Assembly: GCA_945916625.1 (NCBI GenBank)
Contig: CAMEGY010000037.1
Coordinates: 1-8,100, forward strand
From: an uncultured Anaerococcus sp.
Lineage (GTDB): Bacteria; Bacillota_A; Clostridia; Tissierellales; Peptoniphilaceae
DNA length: 8,100 nt
Reading direction: 5' to 3'
Below are positions 1,145 through 7,417 of this stretch, one piece after another. The notes under the pieces are model-generated. The model was not told the DNA's origin. It saw only the letters and a program-made list of their open reading frames with translations, and made no database searches. The stretch's first letter is position 1; each line of letters begins with the position of its first letter. A program made the translations under genes and the position numbers.

Positions 1145-1849
1145 CTATAATACCTCATCAATAGTTAGTTTTTCGTGGACCTTATCAAGTTTACCATCTC
1201 TCATAAAAAGGGTCCTGTCTGCAAATTCTGTCATCTCCTCATCGTGGGTCACCATGATGAAGGTTTGATTGTTTTTTGTTGTTATATCTTTTATAAGTTT
1301 CATAATTTCAAAACTTGTCTTTGTATCAAGGTTGCCGGTAGGTTCGTCCGCAAATATTATAGATGGACTTCCCACAAAGGCCCTTGCGATTGAGACCCTC
1401 TGCTGCTGGCCGCCTGATAATTCGTTTGGCTTGTTGTAAATTCTGTTTTCAAGTCCAACTGCTTTTAGGATTTTTTCTGCCTCAATCTTTCGATTTTTGC
1501 TATCAATCCCCTTAAAGGTTAGGGGAATAGCCACATTCTCCCAAGCCGTTAGGTAGGGTAGAAGATTATAGGACTGGAAGATAAAGCCTATATTTAAATT
1601 CCTAAACTTGGTTATCTTTGTCTCGCTTATCTTTGTAAGGTCTATATTTCCGTATTTAATAGTCCCCTTTGTCGGTCTTTCTAGTCCTGCTAGCATATTT
1701 AAGAGGGTAGACTTGCCAGAACCAGATGTGCCTAGAAGAGCTATAAATTCGCCCTTTTCTATATCGATATTAATACCGTCTAGAGCTTTTATAATGGTGC
1801 CACCCAATTTATAATATTTTTTTAAATCTCTAACTTCTATTAAGCTCAT
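1145..1849 (-). CDS. ABC transporter ATP-binding protein, MacB/LolD-like
   Basis: A complete 234-residue nucleotide-binding subunit, the usual length for this family. All motifs are present: Walker A GTSGSGKST (40-48), Q-loop Gln92, signature LSGGQQQR (144-151), Walker B IIFADE (164-169) with the following TGNLD D-loop, and switch His202 in MVTHD. The ADEPTGNLD wording and the short length point to the MacB/LolD/FtsE group, which couples cytoplasmic ATP hydrolysis to FtsX-like permeases for export, lipoprotein extraction or signalling rather than classical uptake. The likely permease partner begins at 150. The start overlaps the 3' end of the femAB-like gene by 20 bases, with an AGAGAGAAG purine stretch as ribosome binding site, so translation is probably coupled. 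The TAG stop directly abuts, in the same frame, the ATG of the next gene. The substrate cannot be read from the sequence. Confidence 0.95.
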   Translation of the reverse strand: MSLIEVRDLKKYYKLGGTIIKALDGINIDIEKGEFIALLGTSGSGKSTLLNMLAGLERPTKGTIKYGNIDLTKISETKITKFRNLNIGFIFQSYNLLPYLTAWENVAIPLTFKGIDSKNRKIEAEKILKAVGLENRIYNKPNELSGGQQQRVSIARAFVGSPSIIFADEPTGNLDTKTSFEIMKLIKDITTKNNQTFIMVTHDEEMTEFADRTLFMRDGKLDKVHEKLTIDEVL

Positions 1850-2861
1850 TTTCTTCTCTCTTATAGTGTGGATTTAAATCTTCCATATAAAGATCGTATA
1901 CATCAGGATCTATAACCATATCAATCTCACCCACTGTTTCAAAGACGTTATCCTCAGTAAATTTCTTCTTGAAGTTATAGAGTCCATCTGTCCCGTCGGT
2001 TTCAAATATACCGCCCATATCGTAATATCTTATATTATTTTCTATGGCGTACTTAATCTCTTCAAAATTAAGCTGGTAATTTTGGCCCATATTCTTATAT
2101 TCATTAGATGAGCCTCCGTAAAGCGAGGTTGCCCTATTGCCATAGCACAAAAGAAGTGAGGCGCAGACAGGTTTTCCTTCATAAAAGGCAACAGAAAGTC
2201 TTATTTCATCCTTAAAAAGTTCATAAAGTTTTTTGAAATATTCATAAGGCCTGTGCCCAATTTTAGCCCTTATAGCAGTTTCTTCTATCTGGCCATACAA
2301 GATATTAATACCTTCTTCATTTAGGATTTTTGTTTCTATTCCGTCTTTATAGGATTTTCTAAGGTGTTTCCTGGTATTTTTGCTAAAACTACCTCGGATT
2401 TCTTCCTCCCTCCTGCCATTTATATCAAGTACCATATTTAGGATCGGCTGGCTTGACCTCATCTTATCTCTCCTAAAAATAAGGCCAGACTTTTTGAAAG
2501 AATCATCTATCTTTAAATCATAGGGTAAATAAGGATCTATCCTTAGGAGAAAACCGTCATTTTCTTTTGCAAATTCCCTAGATTCTCCTATGAGTTTCTT
2601 AAAATAGTCAATATTGTTTGGGTCACAAACAGGACCTCTTGGCCCGTAGAAAAAGTTCTTACCTGCCTTTTTATCTCTAATATATATTACAGATAAGGCT
2701 GCCCTTATTTCGCCTTCCTCTTCTATGTAAAAATATACACTGTCCCAAGCACTTTTTAGTTCTGCCCACCTTAGGTCCTGTTGGAAGTGGCCGTATGGGG
2801 AAGTTTTTACAAAATCATTATATTTTTCTAGCAATTTTTCGTTATTCTTATCTAATATCAT
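1830..2861 (-). CDS. FemAB/FemX-family peptidoglycan interpeptide-bridge aminoacyltransferase
   Basis: A 343-residue FemAB-family protein. The family transfers an amino acid from aminoacyl-tRNA to the stem-peptide lysine of peptidoglycan precursors, and it consists of paired GNAT-like folds acting at the inner face of the membrane. Matching blocks are FFYGPRGPVCD (70-80), SQPILNMVLDI (137-147) followed by the basic KNTRKHLRKSYKDG stretch (161-174), YGGSS (248-252), YYDMGGI (279-285) and GLYNFKKKF (293-301). The length resembles short FemX-type enzymes, and I see no long coiled-coil insertion like that of staphylococcal FemA. The added amino acid cannot be predicted. It is the first gene of the operon after the promoter at 2913-2941, with GAGAAG just upstream of the ATG. 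It overlaps the ABC ATPase gene by 20 bases, suggesting a shared role in the cell envelope. Confidence 0.88.
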   Translation of the reverse strand: MILDKNNEKLLEKYNDFVKTSPYGHFQQDLRWAELKSAWDSVYFYIEEEGEIRAALSVIYIRDKKAGKNFFYGPRGPVCDPNNIDYFKKLIGESREFAKENDGFLLRIDPYLPYDLKIDDSFKKSGLIFRRDKMRSSQPILNMVLDINGRREEEIRGSFSKNTRKHLRKSYKDGIETKILNEEGINILYGQIEETAIRAKIGHRPYEYFKKLYELFKDEIRLSVAFYEGKPVCASLLLCYGNRATSLYGGSSNEYKNMGQNYQLNFEEIKYAIENNIRYYDMGGIFETDGTDGLYNFKKKFTEDNVFETVGEIDMVIDPDVYDLYMEDLNPHYKREENELNRS

Positions 2862-3564: not shown

Positions 3565-6500
3565 TTATAGTCTTTCTAACTCAATTTTAATTTCCTTATC
3601 ATTAAGCTCAATTGCGTCTTGGTCAAGACTTGTATTTTCTAGACTGTCAGCCAAGGTTTCTTTTTTTATTTCATCTTTAAACTTATCTAGGGATTTGGCT
3701 AGATCCTCATCTGCCTGATAAGAAATATTTATCCTATCAGTTACTTCAAAACCAGAATCTTTTCTAAGATTTTGAATCTTTGAGATAAATTCTCTAGCAT
3801 AACCTTCGTCTTTTAGGTCTTCTGTAATCTCTGTATCAAGGATTACAAAGACATTTCCATCAATTTCAACATCGAAACCTTCTTTGGCAGAAATTCTTAT
3901 ATCTAGGTAATCTTTTGTTACTTCAAACTCTTCCCCACCGATTTCTACATTTACAGGTCCCTTATTTACCTTATCGATAAAGTCTTTGGCATCTACACTT
4001 GCTAGGTATTTTGCAAAGTCATTTACCTTTGATTGGAAAATCCTACCTACTACTCTAAAGTCTGGTTTTAGGAAATAGTCCATAAAGGCTGATAGGTCAT
4101 CTTCAAAGTCAACTTCTTTGATATTTAGCTCTTCTTTTATAAGTGGAAGGAGCTTTTCTAGTCTTTCTTTGTATGAGCCATCAACGATTATCTTCGAAAG
4201 TGGCTGACGAACCTTGATTGATTCCTTTTCTCTTGAAGCACGGCCTAGGTTTACAATCTTACGTACTAGGTCCATGTCAGCTTCTAGGTTTGTATCGATT
4301 AGGCTTTCGTCTACTTCTGGTAAAATTTGTGTGTGAACAGTCTTATCACCAGTTAATTTTTGGTAGATTTCTTCTGCTATAAATGGTGTAATTGGCGCAA
4401 TAAGTTTTGTTAAAGTTACAAGAACATCATAGGTTGTCTTGTATACAGATTTTTTAGACTCTGTTAAATCTTGTGACCAGAATCTTTTCCTATTACGTCT
4501 GATATACCAGTTCGACAAATCTTCTACTACAAAGTCAGAAATTTCGTGGACAACCTTGTTGTATTCAAATTCTTCCATCTCTTCATAATAAGATTTGACT
4601 AGGGAATTTAGTCTAGAATATAACCAGCGGTCAATTCCATCCTTCTCTACTCCCTCAAAGCCTTTGATATCGGCTAGGCTTAGGCCATCTGTACCTGCAT
4701 ATAGGCTGAAGAAGTTATAGACATTTTCAAATGTCCTAAAGAAGTTGTTTCTAACTTCAACTAGGCCTTTTTCGTCAAATTTGGTTTGCATCCAAGCTGG
4801 AGATACATATAGAGAATAGAACCTAACTGCATCTGCTCCGTACTTATCGAAAAGTTCGAATGGATCTAGGGTGTTACCCTTTGATTTTGACATTTTTTGG
4901 CCGTTTTTATCTACAACTAGGTCGTTTACAAGGACGTTTTTGTATGGTGCCTTGCCTGTTGTGATTGTAGAGATTGCCATTAGGGAATAGAACCAACCCC
5001 TTGTTTGGTCTATACCTTCGCAGATAAAGTCTGCTGGGTAGTAGCCTTCTTCAAATAGGTCTTTGTTTTCAAATGGATAGTGGAGTTGGGCAAATGGCAT
5101 AGCTCCTGAGTCAAACCATACGTCCATTACGTCAGGTACCCTTGTCATAGTGCCGCCGCACTTATCACATTTGATGTGGACATTATCTACATATGGTCTG
5201 TGTAGCTCTATATCTTCTGAAATATCTTCGATTGCACGTTCTTTAAGCTCAGCACGACTAGCAACTGTGTCTGTATGGCCGCACTCGCATCTCCAGATAT
5301 TAAGTGGTGTACCCCAGTATCTAGATCTTGAAATCGCCCAGTCTTTGACATTTTCTAGCCAGTTTCCAAATCTCTTATCTCCGATTGTTTGTGGATACCA
5401 ATTTACTGTCTTGTTATTTTCTACCATCTTATCTGAGAATTTGCTCATTTCGATATACCAAGATGGTCTTGCATAATAGATTAGTGGTGTGTGGCATCTC
5501 CAACAGTGTGGGTAGTTATGTTCTACTGTTTCTTTTGCAAAAACCTTGCCTTCTTCTTGGAGGTGGCGCCAGATTTTTTCATTTGTATCAAATACAAATT
5601 CACCCTTCCATGGTGTTTCTGTAAATTTACCATCTAGGTCAACTGGTTGGATAAAGTCTAGGTCATATTTTCTACAAGCTTGGTAGTCGTCCTCACCAAA
5701 GGCAGGAGCGATGTGAACTATACCTGTACCATCTTCTGCTGATACATAGTCAGCTAGAATTACCTTAAAGGCCTTACCTGGTTGGGTTTTGACATATGGT
5801 AGGAGTTGCTCATATTCCATAAGCTCTAAATCAGTACCCTTAACTTCTTCTACCACTTCATATTCTCTTTTGTCCATGAGTTTATTCATTAGAGATTTTG
5901 CCATATAATAGTAACAATCATCTTCTTTGTCAAGCACTTTTACATAGCTTAGCTCTGGATTTACAGCAAGGGCAAGGTTTGATGGAAGTGTCCATGGTGT
6001 TGTTGTCCATGCTAGAAAATACTCATTGTCTGCATCTTTTTTCTTAAACCTAACTGTAAGAGTAAGGGTCTTTTCCAATTCATAACCTTGGGCAACCTCG
6101 TGGCTTGCAAGACCAGTTCCACATCTTGGGCAATATGGCATAACCTTTGCACCTTCATAGATATAACCATTTTTGAAGGCCTTATCTAATAGCCACCACT
6201 CAGTTTCGATGTAGTTATTATCCATAGTTACATATGGGTGGTCCATGTCATATAAGAAGCCCATCCTATCTGACATGTCCCTCCACATATCAGAATATTT
6301 CCAAACAGATTCCTTACATAGGTGGTTGAATTTTTCTATACCATATTCTTCTATGTCATTTTTATCATGAAAACCTAGTTGTTTTTCAACTTCGATTTCT
6401 ACAGGTAGGCCGTGTGTATCCCAGCCTGCCTTTTTAAGTACCTTATAGCCTTTCATATTTTTATAACGGCTAGTCATATCCTTAAGTGTCCTTGCTATAA

Positions 6501-6684
6501 CGTGGTGGATACCCGGCTTGCCGTTGGCTGTTGGAGGTCCGTCATAAATTACGTATTCGTCCGCATCCTCGCGTGTCTTAAAGGTTTCTTCTAATAGGTC
6601 AATCTCATTCCAATAGTCTTTGAGTTTGGCTTCTCTTTGCCTTACATCTTTGGAATTTACTTCTTCAAATCTCAAATCGCACAT
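3565..6684 (-). CDS. ileS: Isoleucyl-tRNA synthetase, IleRS2 type with altered HIGH motif (GIHH)
   Basis: A full-length 1039-residue class I synthetase that charges tRNA-Ile in the cytoplasm. In order: YDGPPTANGKPGIHH (47-61) holding the HIGH-equivalent motif; CPRC (185-188); the CP1 editing domain with WTTTPWT (226-232) and GTGIVHIAPAFGEDD (319-333); zinc-type pairs C394/C397, C466/C468 and C506/C509; WFDSG (523-527); GIDQTRGWFYSL (557-568); KMSKS (597-601); then the anticodon-binding domain (about 680-830) and a long C-terminal region. The PPTANG wording, GWDTHGLPVE (87-96) and the length place it in the eukaryote-like IleRS2 group rather than IleRS1. The signature HxGH reads G58-I59-H60-H61, with first and third residues exchanged; I confirmed this from the codons at 6513-6502. 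IleRS2 enzymes resist mupirocin, and this swap is reported to raise resistance further. The ribosome binding site AGGAAGG precedes the ATG by 7 bases. A T-box leader controls expression. Confidence 0.98.
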   Translation of the reverse strand: MCDLRFEEVNSKDVRQREAKLKDYWNEIDLLEETFKTREDADEYVIYDGPPTANGKPGIHHVIARTLKDMTSRYKNMKGYKVLKKAGWDTHGLPVEIEVEKQLGFHDKNDIEEYGIEKFNHLCKESVWKYSDMWRDMSDRMGFLYDMDHPYVTMDNNYIETEWWLLDKAFKNGYIYEGAKVMPYCPRCGTGLASHEVAQGYELEKTLTLTVRFKKKDADNEYFLAWTTTPWTLPSNLALAVNPELSYVKVLDKEDDCYYYMAKSLMNKLMDKREYEVVEEVKGTDLELMEYEQLLPYVKTQPGKAFKVILADYVSAEDGTGIVHIAPAFGEDDYQACRKYDLDFIQPVDLDGKFTETPWKGEFVFDTNEKIWRHLQEEGKVFAKETVEHNYPHCWRCHTPLIYYARPSWYIEMSKFSDKMVENNKTVNWYPQTIGDKRFGNWLENVKDWAISRSRYWGTPLNIWRCECGHTDTVASRAELKERAIEDISEDIELHRPYVDNVHIKCDKCGGTMTRVPDVMDVWFDSGAMPFAQLHYPFENKDLFEEGYYPADFICEGIDQTRGWFYSLMAISTITTGKAPYKNVLVNDLVVDKNGQKMSKSKGNTLDPFELFDKYGADAVRFYSLYVSPAWMQTKFDEKGLVEVRNNFFRTFENVYNFFSLYAGTDGLSLADIKGFEGVEKDGIDRWLYSRLNSLVKSYYEEMEEFEYNKVVHEISDFVVEDLSNWYIRRNRKRFWSQDLTESKKSVYKTTYDVLVTLTKLIAPITPFIAEEIYQKLTGDKTVHTQILPEVDESLIDTNLEADMDLVRKIVNLGRASREKESIKVRQPLSKIIVDGSYKERLEKLLPLIKEELNIKEVDFEDDLSAFMDYFLKPDFRVVGRIFQSKVNDFAKYLASVDAKDFIDKVNKGPVNVEIGGEEFEVTKDYLDIRISAKEGFDVEIDGNVFVILDTEITEDLKDEGYAREFISKIQNLRKDSGFEVTDRINISYQADEDLAKSLDKFKDEIKKETLADSLENTSLDQDAIELNDKEIKIELERL

Positions 6685-6701
6685 ATAATTTCCTTCCTAA
6701 T

Positions 6702-6729
6702 AAAAAAGGACCATCCATACAGACGGTCC
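6702..6729 (-). terminator. T-box-controlled terminator hairpin of ileS
   Basis: On the minus strand, GGACCGTCT (6729-6721), loop GTAT, and GGATGGTCC (6716-6708) form a 9-bp stem with two wobbles. TTTTTT follows (6707-6702). The left arm reuses the ACC-containing end of the T-box sequence, so pairing of the T-box with upstream RNA would exclude this hairpin. It lies 17 bases before the ileS start codon. Confidence 0.88.
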
Positions 6730-6895
6730 ACTTATTTCCTAGTTTGCTCTTAAGGCTTGGCATTCCTAATTGGCTAATATTTTCACCAATCAAACAATAA
6801 AGTGATTTTCATCTATAAAGCCCCTAGCATTCTCACCAACCATGCCTCTCTGAAGGTTTTTTATAAATTACTCTTCTTTATATAGTCATTATTCT
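6725..6895 (-). promoter_or_regulatory. T-box riboswitch leader of ileS, isoleucine specifier AUC
   Basis: This leader senses uncharged tRNA-Ile and permits ileS transcription when charging is low. Stem I is recognisable on the minus strand. Its base helix is ATAAAG (6881-6876) with CTTTAT (6802-6797). The 5' side of the specifier loop carries AGTA (6872-6869), and the 3' side carries GAAA followed by ATC (6806-6804), an isoleucine codon. The distal part has the AGAGAG bulge (6851-6846), GCAT/ATGC, and the GGTTGGTGAG terminal-loop motif near 6842-6833. The T-box itself is AAGTGGACCG (around 6733-6724), leading into the terminator. The consensus TGGNACC is shortened here to TGGACC. I could not draw a convincing complete antiterminator by eye. 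The T-box class is clear; the details of its 3' part are less so. Confidence 0.88.
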
Positions 6896-6901
6896 CCATT
6901 T

Positions 6902-6929
6902 AATGTACTATTTTAGCCGTATTTGTCAA
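6902..6929 (-). promoter_or_regulatory. Promoter of the ileS T-box transcript
   Basis: A perfect TTGACA (6929-6924) lies 16 bases from TACATT (6907-6902), which matches four of six positions. Transcription would start near 6895, just before Stem I of the T-box. The -35 hexamer contains the TGA stop codon of the AMMECR1-like gene (6928-6926), and no terminator intervenes. Confidence 0.6.
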
Positions 6930-7417
6930 ATATGTCTTATGATCTTAAACTTTTCCATAGTGTAGATATCAAAGTCGTCCACATTTGCTATATCCTTTGC
7001 ATCTTCATACATCTGAAAGTCTGATTCATAATCTTCCCTAAAGACTATTGCAGGGTTATTGGCATAGGAAAGTAAAAGTCCCGAATAAACTCCAAAGTCT
7101 TCTATTTCTTCAATTTGCTCAACCTTATTTATCTCTAAAACCTGGATATAAATATCATCAAGGTCTTCCATTTTTAGGGCAAAGGCATTATCAAAAACAC
7201 CTAGATTGATAGTCTCATGGATTATATCAAGGGCAATATTGGCCCTAGTTGGATAAATCGATCCGGACCATTCCGTCCTATCGCCTTTGGTAATTTGAAC
7301 TAAGACTCCGTTATGGTTGTTCTTAAATTCTTCGTCATACTTATCAAGGAACTTGCCTGTCTCTAGATAATATCTTAGAGAATCAAAGGCAAGGTCTACA
7401 AATTTATCCTTATGCAT
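6926..7417 (-). CDS. Divergent AMMECR1-like protein
   Basis: A 163-residue cytoplasmic-looking protein with no signal or membrane segment. The central part resembles AMMECR1: GVLVQITKGDRTEWSGSI (37-54), the YPTRANIALDIIHETI block (55-70), then LKMEDLDDIYIQVLEI (81-96) and a QIEEIEDFGVYSGLLL stretch (101-116). These match the family order of 'GxFVTL', 'LRGCIG-xxPTRxNIAxxI', 'ELxDLxIxVxVL' and the strand that follows. The hallmark LRGCIG reads EWSGSI here, so its Arg and Cys are missing. AMMECR1 occurs in the three-part AmmeMemoRadiSam set (AMMECR1, Memo-like dioxygenase fold, radical SAM), but neither partner is in this window. It is probably translationally coupled to the peroxidase gene: its ATG overlaps that gene's end by 8 bases and GAGG lies about 9 bases upstream. 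The family call is by sequence pattern only, and the function is unknown. Confidence 0.65.
   Translation of the reverse strand: MHKDKFVDLAFDSLRYYLETGKFLDKYDEEFKNNHNGVLVQITKGDRTEWSGSIYPTRANIALDIIHETINLGVFDNAFALKMEDLDDIYIQVLEINKVEQIEEIEDFGVYSGLLLSYANNPAIVFREDYESDFQMYEDAKDIANVDDFDIYTMEKFKIIRHI

What the first reader, a model, noticed from the sequence alone, without database searches (positions are those of the whole stretch)
6502..6513. IleRS with first and third HIGH residues swapped (GIHH)
The class I synthetase signature HxGH reads Gly-Ile-His-His, directly legible in codons GGT ATC CAC CAC. All other catalytic blocks (KMSKS, WTTTPWT, GWDTHGLP) are intact, so this is not decay. Established knowledge: IleRS2-type enzymes are mupirocin resistant, and a natural GxHH swap in some IleRS2 proteins has been reported to give hyper-resistance. 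Inference: if this T-box-controlled gene is the only ileS, the organism should be intrinsically and strongly mupirocin resistant with no acquired mupA.
Basis: partly seen in the sequence, partly recalled or inferred. Interest (0 to 1): 0.7.

Follow-up and report, generated by a model that had tools for sequence, protein, structure and literature searches.

The report
Anaerococcus IleRS2 with swapped HIGH motif
This gene, likely from an Anaerococcus bacterium and predicted to encode its ordinary isoleucine-charging enzyme, reads a swapped active-site motif (Gly-Ile-His-His) that every Anaerococcus relative read here shares, and that, by published work on other enzymes of this type, would make the enzyme strongly insensitive to the antibiotic mupirocin.

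Summary
Observation confirmed: the 1039-aa IleRS at 3565-6684(-) reads GIHH (GGT ATC CAC CAC, 6502-6513). It is a type 2 IleRS (DUF5915 C-terminus, no IleRS1 zinc finger), likely from an Anaerococcus. The GxHH swap and its mupirocin hyper-resistance were published in 2023 (PMC10485003), so this is a new member of a known kind. It is not recent: 80 of 80 best-matching loci kept and 31 of 31 Anaerococcus genomes carry it, with much synonymous codon variation, and 38 of the 39 GxHH rows on the tree form one clade. Each of those 31 genomes holds one ileS, so no sensitive IleRS1 is seen; the window's own genome is not held. Mupirocin insensitivity is inferred, not tested.

Two things noticed on the way are less ordinary. 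(1) The ileS T-box of this genus appears to have lost antiterminator helix A2 and the base facing the tRNA discriminator (UGGA(C/T)CGU in 32 of 32 leaders; 41 of 41 other T-box matches in three of these genomes are canonical). (2) IleRS1 of Ruminiclostridium/Acetivibrio-type bacteria reads HxGT instead of HxGH (7 of 20 IleRS1 in a class sample).

The parts
3565..6684 (-). ileS2: type 2 isoleucine--tRNA ligase, 1039 aa
   Evidence: TIGR00392 956 bits, cut-off 621.4; best PDB relatives are the IleRS2 entries 8c8w/8c8u/8c8v/8c9d
6502..6513 (-). swapped class I signature GIHH (residues 58-61)
   Evidence: codons GGT ATC CAC CAC
4882..4896 (-). KMSKS motif (residues 597-601), intact
   Evidence: translation; alignment
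4921..4926 (-). Asn587-Asp588 before KMSKS; mostly (Leu/Met)-Gly in HxGH IleRS2
   Evidence: column counts: D588 in 125 of 129 GxHH rows, G588 in 37 of 37 HxGH IleRS2 rows; rows include repeats and the split is confounded with descent
3571..4143 (-). C-terminal DUF5915 (PF19302), used here as mark of type 2; no zf-FPG_IleRS
6705..6892 (-). T-box leader (RF00230), below gathering score
   Evidence: 67.6 bits, gathering 93, E 1.3e-14; none at gathering
6804..6806 (-). predicted specifier codon AUC (Ile)
   Evidence: placed by eye after GAA of the specifier loop; GAA-x-ATCA(C/T) found upstream in 31 of 31 Anaerococcus ileS leaders checked
6723..6730 (-). UGGACCGU in place of UGGNACC plus helix A2 of the antiterminator
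6708..6729 (-). predicted intrinsic terminator hairpin, followed by U6 at 6702-6707
   Evidence: RNA fold, (56-nt stretch, z -3.00, 2 of 200 shuffles fold as well; -14.4 kcal/mol)

Best explanation
The gene is predicted to be the sole housekeeping isoleucyl-tRNA synthetase of what is likely an Anaerococcus, a type 2 enzyme whose class I signature reads GIHH instead of HxGH, and its third His would take over the catalytic role of the usual first His while sterically blocking mupirocin. Shown here: the motif, the type 2 domain layout, the conservation in all relatives read, and the single ileS copy in 31 of 31 genus genomes. Inferred from published work on other IleRS2 enzymes: the catalytic substitution by the third His, the clash with mupirocin, and an inhibition constant in the high micromolar to millimolar range. 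The swap was inherited from an ancestor of one IleRS2 clade, not acquired recently. Transcription is predicted to be controlled by an isoleucine-specific T-box.
For: Motif in frame; type 2 domain layout; nearest solved relative is 8c8w, whose printed sequence itself reads PGVHH, ahead of 8c8u and 8c8v, which read PHVGH. GxHH in 80 of 80 loci kept, in 120 of 120 best-listed proteins, and in 31 of 31 Anaerococcus genomes (30, the last); these sets overlap. 39 codon spellings in 80 loci argue for selection on the residues. One ileS in 31 of 31 Anaerococcus genomes; one match over the family cut-off in each of 8 genomes of named relatives, three of them Anaerococcus. 38 of the 39 GxHH rows on a 71-row tree form one clade, SH-aLRT 100. 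PMC10485003: 86 of 379 IleRS are G/AXHH IleRS2; D. radiodurans ALHH enzyme Ki 6.6 mM, 823-fold lower with a canonical motif.
Against: No measurement on this enzyme or any Anaerococcus; no mupirocin MIC for anaerobic cocci surfaced in the listings, none of whose papers I opened. The window's own genome is not held. GVHH put into canonical IleRS2 enzymes gave Ki of only 35 and 460 uM, so the level cannot be read from the motif alone.
Confidence: 0.92

Rival explanations
1. The motif swap is mainly a neutral or catalytic feature fixed by descent in this IleRS2 clade, and mupirocin has played no selective role in Anaerococcus; insensitivity is then a by-product.
For: The swap marks one old clade. 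[quoted passage not shown] Neighbouring active-site columns differ along with the motif: D588 in 125 of 129 GxHH rows against G588 in 37 of 37 HxGH IleRS2 rows, Ala/Ser64 in 128 of 129 against Thr64 in 35 of 37.
Against: The published authors argue for antibiotic selection. The column differences follow one main branch of the tree, so they cannot separate coupling from descent; the one GxHH row outside that clade, Riemerella L192, keeps G588.
Confidence: 0.4
2. A second, mupirocin-sensitive IleRS1 is present and this gene is an accessory resistance gene like mupA or P. megaterium ileS2.
For: Such pairs exist in a small group of Bacillaceae (PMC10485003).
Against: 31 of 31 Anaerococcus genomes and each of the 57 of 60 class-sample genomes with a match hold exactly one ileS at E 1e-120. 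The MupA model scores 923.9 against a cut-off of 1900. The neighbouring frames of L001 match the window in order and nearly in length, as for a resident gene.
Confidence: 0.03
3. Decay or sequencing error at the signature motif.
For: None found.
Against: Shared by 80 of 80 loci kept, with diverse codons; frame intact over 1039 codons.
Confidence: 0.005

Closest known systems
G/AXHH type 2 IleRS (PMC10485003; D. radiodurans ALHH, Streptomyces griseus)
   Same: Swap of first and third signature positions in an IleRS2; housekeeping role
   Different: This one is from Anaerococcus and T-box-led; its inhibition has not been measured
P. megaterium IleRS2 (PDB 8c8u/8c8v; GVHH form 8c8w)
   Same: Nearly the same length, aligned over residues 7-1032
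   Different: The native P. megaterium enzyme is HVGH and coexists with IleRS1; here GIHH and the only ileS in genus relatives
MupA, plasmid-borne (L191)
   Same: Type 2 IleRS, 40.9% identical
   Different: L191 reads HAGH, canonical; the window protein misses the NCBIfam MupA cut-off
IleRS2 on a Riemerella anatipestifer plasmid (L192)
   Same: Also reads GIHH
   Different: 39.3% identical, Bacteroidota, outside the main GxHH clade on a long branch whose place is unsure
T-box leader RF00230
   Same: Full-length model match with stem I, AUC specifier and terminator
   Different: UGGACCGU directly on helix A1: no N facing the tRNA discriminator base, no helix A2

Membership tests
Isoleucine--tRNA ligase (TIGR00392) | Score over curated cut-off 621.4 | tested here: met
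   956 bits
Type 2 IleRS | Type 2 C-terminal domain, no zinc-binding zf-FPG_IleRS | tested here: met
   PF19302 178.6 bits, no PF06827; an IleRS1 (L085) shows the reverse. That PF19302 marks type 2 is my reading of these profiles
G/AXHH IleRS2 | Gly or Ala at position 1 and His at position 3 of the signature | tested here: met
   GIHH
G/AXHH IleRS2 | Mupirocin Ki far above that of HxGH IleRS2 | not testable with these tools
   needs enzyme kinetics
G/AXHH IleRS2 | Housekeeping role as sole ileS | tested here: inconclusive
   31 of 31 Anaerococcus genomes have one ileS; own genome not held
MupA (NF000257) | Score over curated cut-off 1900 | tested here: not met
   923.9 bits
T-box leader (RF00230) | Rfam gathering score 93 | tested here: not met
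   67.6 bits
T-box leader (RF00230) | Specifier codon matching the downstream synthetase | tested here: met
   AUC, pattern in 31 of 31 genus leaders checked; placement by eye
T-box leader (RF00230) | 7-nt bulge UGGN-ACC between helices A1 and A2 (PMC7583486, passages) | tested here: not met
   UGGA(C/T)CGU in 32 of 32 genus ileS leaders (31, one)

The most novel reading that the evidence does not exclude
The switch in front of this gene is a miniature T-box: the ileS leader of Anaerococcus has discarded antiterminator helix A2, the part that carries the published steric sensor for charged tRNA, and the base that reads the tRNA discriminator, and works with a bare 8-nt loop (UGGACCGU) on helix A1. 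It would be an exception to a core described as essentially identical in all known T-boxes, sitting on a synthetase whose own signature motif is also rewired.
Probability: 0.4. Interest if true: 0.6.

Novelty: new member of a known kind. Interest (0 to 1): 0.27.

Why it matters
It places the genus Anaerococcus, and the wider IleRS2 clade around it, among bacteria predicted to be intrinsically very insensitive to mupirocin, a drug used to clear nasal Staphylococcus; that predicts they ride through decolonisation. The signature swap itself is already explained in print. The T-box variant, if functional, would test how a T-box senses tRNA charging without helix A2; the HxGT IleRS1 group would test whether the fourth His of HIGH is dispensable and whether it affects mupirocin binding.

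Tried and rejected
Sequencing error, decay, acquired mupA and a second ileS were each tested and rejected as far as relatives can tell. I tested the idea that the residue aligned with P. megaterium His582 (Leu589 here; alignment by my count) switches with the motif: it does not strictly, since 10 of 37 HxGH IleRS2 rows also have Leu. G588 to D does track the motif among most relatives, but Riemerella L192 and L036 (GxHH with Gly588) break it, and almost all the rest is one clade, so I keep it as a lead only. Complementarity between GUGGACC of the ileS leader and the tRNA-Ile acceptor 3' strand (GGUCCAC) was noted; it would need an opened acceptor stem, and Helcococcus has the same acceptor end (L258) with a UGGUAAC-type T-box (L012), so I do not rely on it. 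Literature searches for mupirocin in anaerobic cocci and in Clostridium or Bifidobacterium gave listings only; I opened none of those papers. Structure prediction was not run: sequence already placed the protein beside solved IleRS2 entries.

Full report
What is there. The window carries seven likely genes on the minus strand (my reading of the ORF list); the one in question is 3565-6684(-), 1039 aa, intact. Residues 58-61 read Gly-Ile-His-His from GGT ATC CAC CAC at 6502-6513. NCBIfam places it as isoleucine--tRNA ligase (TIGR00392, 956 bits over a cut-off of 621.4). Pfam gives the class I core, the anticodon-binding domain and DUF5915, and no zf-FPG_IleRS; an IleRS1 run beside it (L085) shows the zinc finger and no DUF5915. 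It is therefore type 2. The best solved relative is 8c8w, whose own letters read PGVHH in the printed alignment, ahead of 8c8u and 8c8v, which read PHVGH.

Where it comes from. The nearest proteins with a name are 94% identical (uncultured Anaerococcus sp.) and 93% (A. lactolyticus ATCC 51172); the nearest locus of genome contigs is Anaerococcus sp. Marseille-P3915, 87%, whose neighbouring frames match the window in order and nearly in size. No genome is held for the window itself.

How widespread is the swap. The 80 loci kept all read GxHH: 76 GIHH, 3 GLHH, 1 GVHH. The 120 proteins listed all do. In the genus search 31 of 31 genomes read GIHH (30, the last, G340). These sets overlap. The four positions are spelled in 39 ways in the 80 loci and 10 ways in 30 Anaerococcus loci, so the residues are held while the codons drift. 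In a sample of G001's class (60 genomes, G001 included; 57 with a match, each with one; 3 without), I read all 57: IleRS2 GxHH 12, IleRS2 HxGH 25, IleRS1 HxGH 13, IleRS1 HxGT 7. On a tree of 71 chosen rows with the motif columns left out, 38 of the 39 GxHH rows form one clade with SH-aLRT 100; the 39th, from a Riemerella plasmid, sits apart on a long branch whose place is unsure (quick tree, LG+G4, no bootstrap). The swap in this window is thus old and inherited.

Copy number. With TIGR00392 at E 1e-120, 31 of 31 Anaerococcus genomes have one match and none has two. In 8 genomes of named relatives one match each passes the family cut-off; the weaker rows, which I take for other class I synthetases, do not.

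What it should do. Brkic et al. (PMC10485003; I read the introduction, parts 1 and 2 of 3 of the results, the modelling section, the discussion and two passages) report 86 G/AXHH IleRS2 among 379 IleRS, a 6.6 mM Ki for the natural ALHH enzyme of D. radiodurans, an 823-fold drop when it is given a canonical motif, about 200- to 430-fold rises in the reverse experiment, and loss of activity when IleRS1 is given the swap. Their structures show the third His taking the place of the first, and a modelled clash with mupirocin. A second paper gives 10 mM for the S. griseus enzyme (PMC4861432, passages). By inference the Anaerococcus enzyme is active and strongly insensitive. No MIC for the genus surfaced (listings only), so this remains a prediction.

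The leader. RF00230 matches 6705-6892(-) with 67.6 bits, under the gathering score of 93. A specifier AUC stands at 6804-6806(-). The tRNA-binding end of the leader is odd: it reads UGGACCGU where Finegoldia L016 and Peptoniphilus L022 read UGGUACC followed by the first bases of a helix A2. UGGA(C/T)CGU is present in 32 of 32 Anaerococcus ileS leaders (window and 30 loci, G340), between three kinds of flanks that can close a helix A1 (AG/CU, GGG/CCC, GG/CC with outer A-U pairs); the sister-like locus L009 reads UGGUUCGU. Of 20 leaders from other genera, 9 show UGGNACC by pattern and none UGGACC; of the 11 others I read four, three of which are UGGUAAC-type and one is L009, and seven were not read. 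In three Anaerococcus genomes all 41 T-box matches other than ileS have the canonical UGGN-A(A/C/T)C with the next bases of helix A2 (38, 3; matches). The ten tRNA-Ile(GAU) genes read from seven Anaerococcus genomes end in GGUCC-A-CCA, so the discriminator base is A73 (ARAGORN for six of them), which the A after UGG cannot pair with. [quoted passage not shown] The TBDB paper notes 48 leaders without a findable UGGN (PMC7778990, passages). Against a working switch: with the closing pair of A1 forced, leaders of the window's type fold between -2.4 and +1.0 kcal/mol (window -1.4), against about -14 for the terminator; the other two types are firmer, -3.8 to -10.1. An unforced fold of the stretch before the terminator shows no antiterminator. 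So the leader may have decayed towards a plain terminator. The literature searches listed no paper whose title or abstract tells of a T-box without A2; PMC9413887, seen only in the listing, holds the words Anaerococcus and T-box riboswitch.

A second HIGH variant. Nine of 51 IleRS1 rows in my alignment have Thr at the fourth position (HLGT, HMGT, HIGT). Relatives of one of them (L085) include Ruminiclostridium cellulolyticum, R. papyrosolvens, Pseudobacteroides cellulosolvens and Acetivibrio mesophilus; of the 120 listed, 103 are HxGT, 14 HxGH and 3 not readable by my pattern. PMC10485003 states that HXGH is present in all IleRS1 of its set and mentions laboratory-selected S. aureus with Gln at the fourth position. 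Whether HxGT affects mupirocin is unknown, and I made no search for it in print beyond.

Verdict. The signature is a known natural variant, here genus-wide, so interest is modest; the leader and the HxGT IleRS1 group deserve the follow-up.

Noticed in passing
window 6685-6892 (-); ileS leaders of L141-L170 and L286: ileS T-box of Anaerococcus reads UGGA(C/T)CGU as a bare loop on helix A1 in 32 of 32 leaders: no base for the tRNA discriminator (A73) and no helix A2, while 41 of 41 other T-box matches in three Anaerococcus genomes are canonical.
   Followed up: partly
L085, L086, L088, L089, L096, L112, L113, L208, L213: Natural IleRS1 with HxGT instead of HxGH: 7 of 20 IleRS1 in the class sample; 103 of 117 readable among 120 listed relatives of L085, named ones from Ruminiclostridium, Acetivibrio, Pseudobacteroides. 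L208 also reads AMHKS for KMSKS.
   Followed up: partly
window 4921-4926 (-), residues 587-588: Asn-Asp before KMSKS in nearly all GxHH IleRS2 rows where HxGH IleRS2 rows mostly have (Leu/Met)-Gly; also Ala/Ser64 for Thr64. Confounded with descent; L192 and L036 are exceptions.
   Followed up: partly
L192 (Riemerella anatipestifer plasmid): A plasmid-borne IleRS2 with GIHH, 39% identical to the window protein.
   Followed up: no
L193 (Pseudoalteromonas plasmid pTML1): IleRS2 on pTML1 reads HHGH, with an odd KMSKRLRN block; I recall this plasmid as carrying thiomarinol synthesis, not checked.
   Followed up: no
L197, L198: Two unverified 'Bacteriophage sp.' records hold a nearly full-length HxGH IleRS2; more likely bacterial DNA in phage scaffolds.
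   Followed up: no
L210, L211: GxHH IleRS2 rows with KMHKS in place of KMSKS.
   Followed up: no
window 6926-7417 (-): 163-aa protein between ileS and a glutathione peroxidase-like gene with only a sub-threshold AMMECR1 match and no NCBIfam match.
   Followed up: no
window 1830-2861 (-): FemAB-family gene, below the NCBIfam FemX cut-off, next to an ABC transporter ATPase gene.
   Followed up: no
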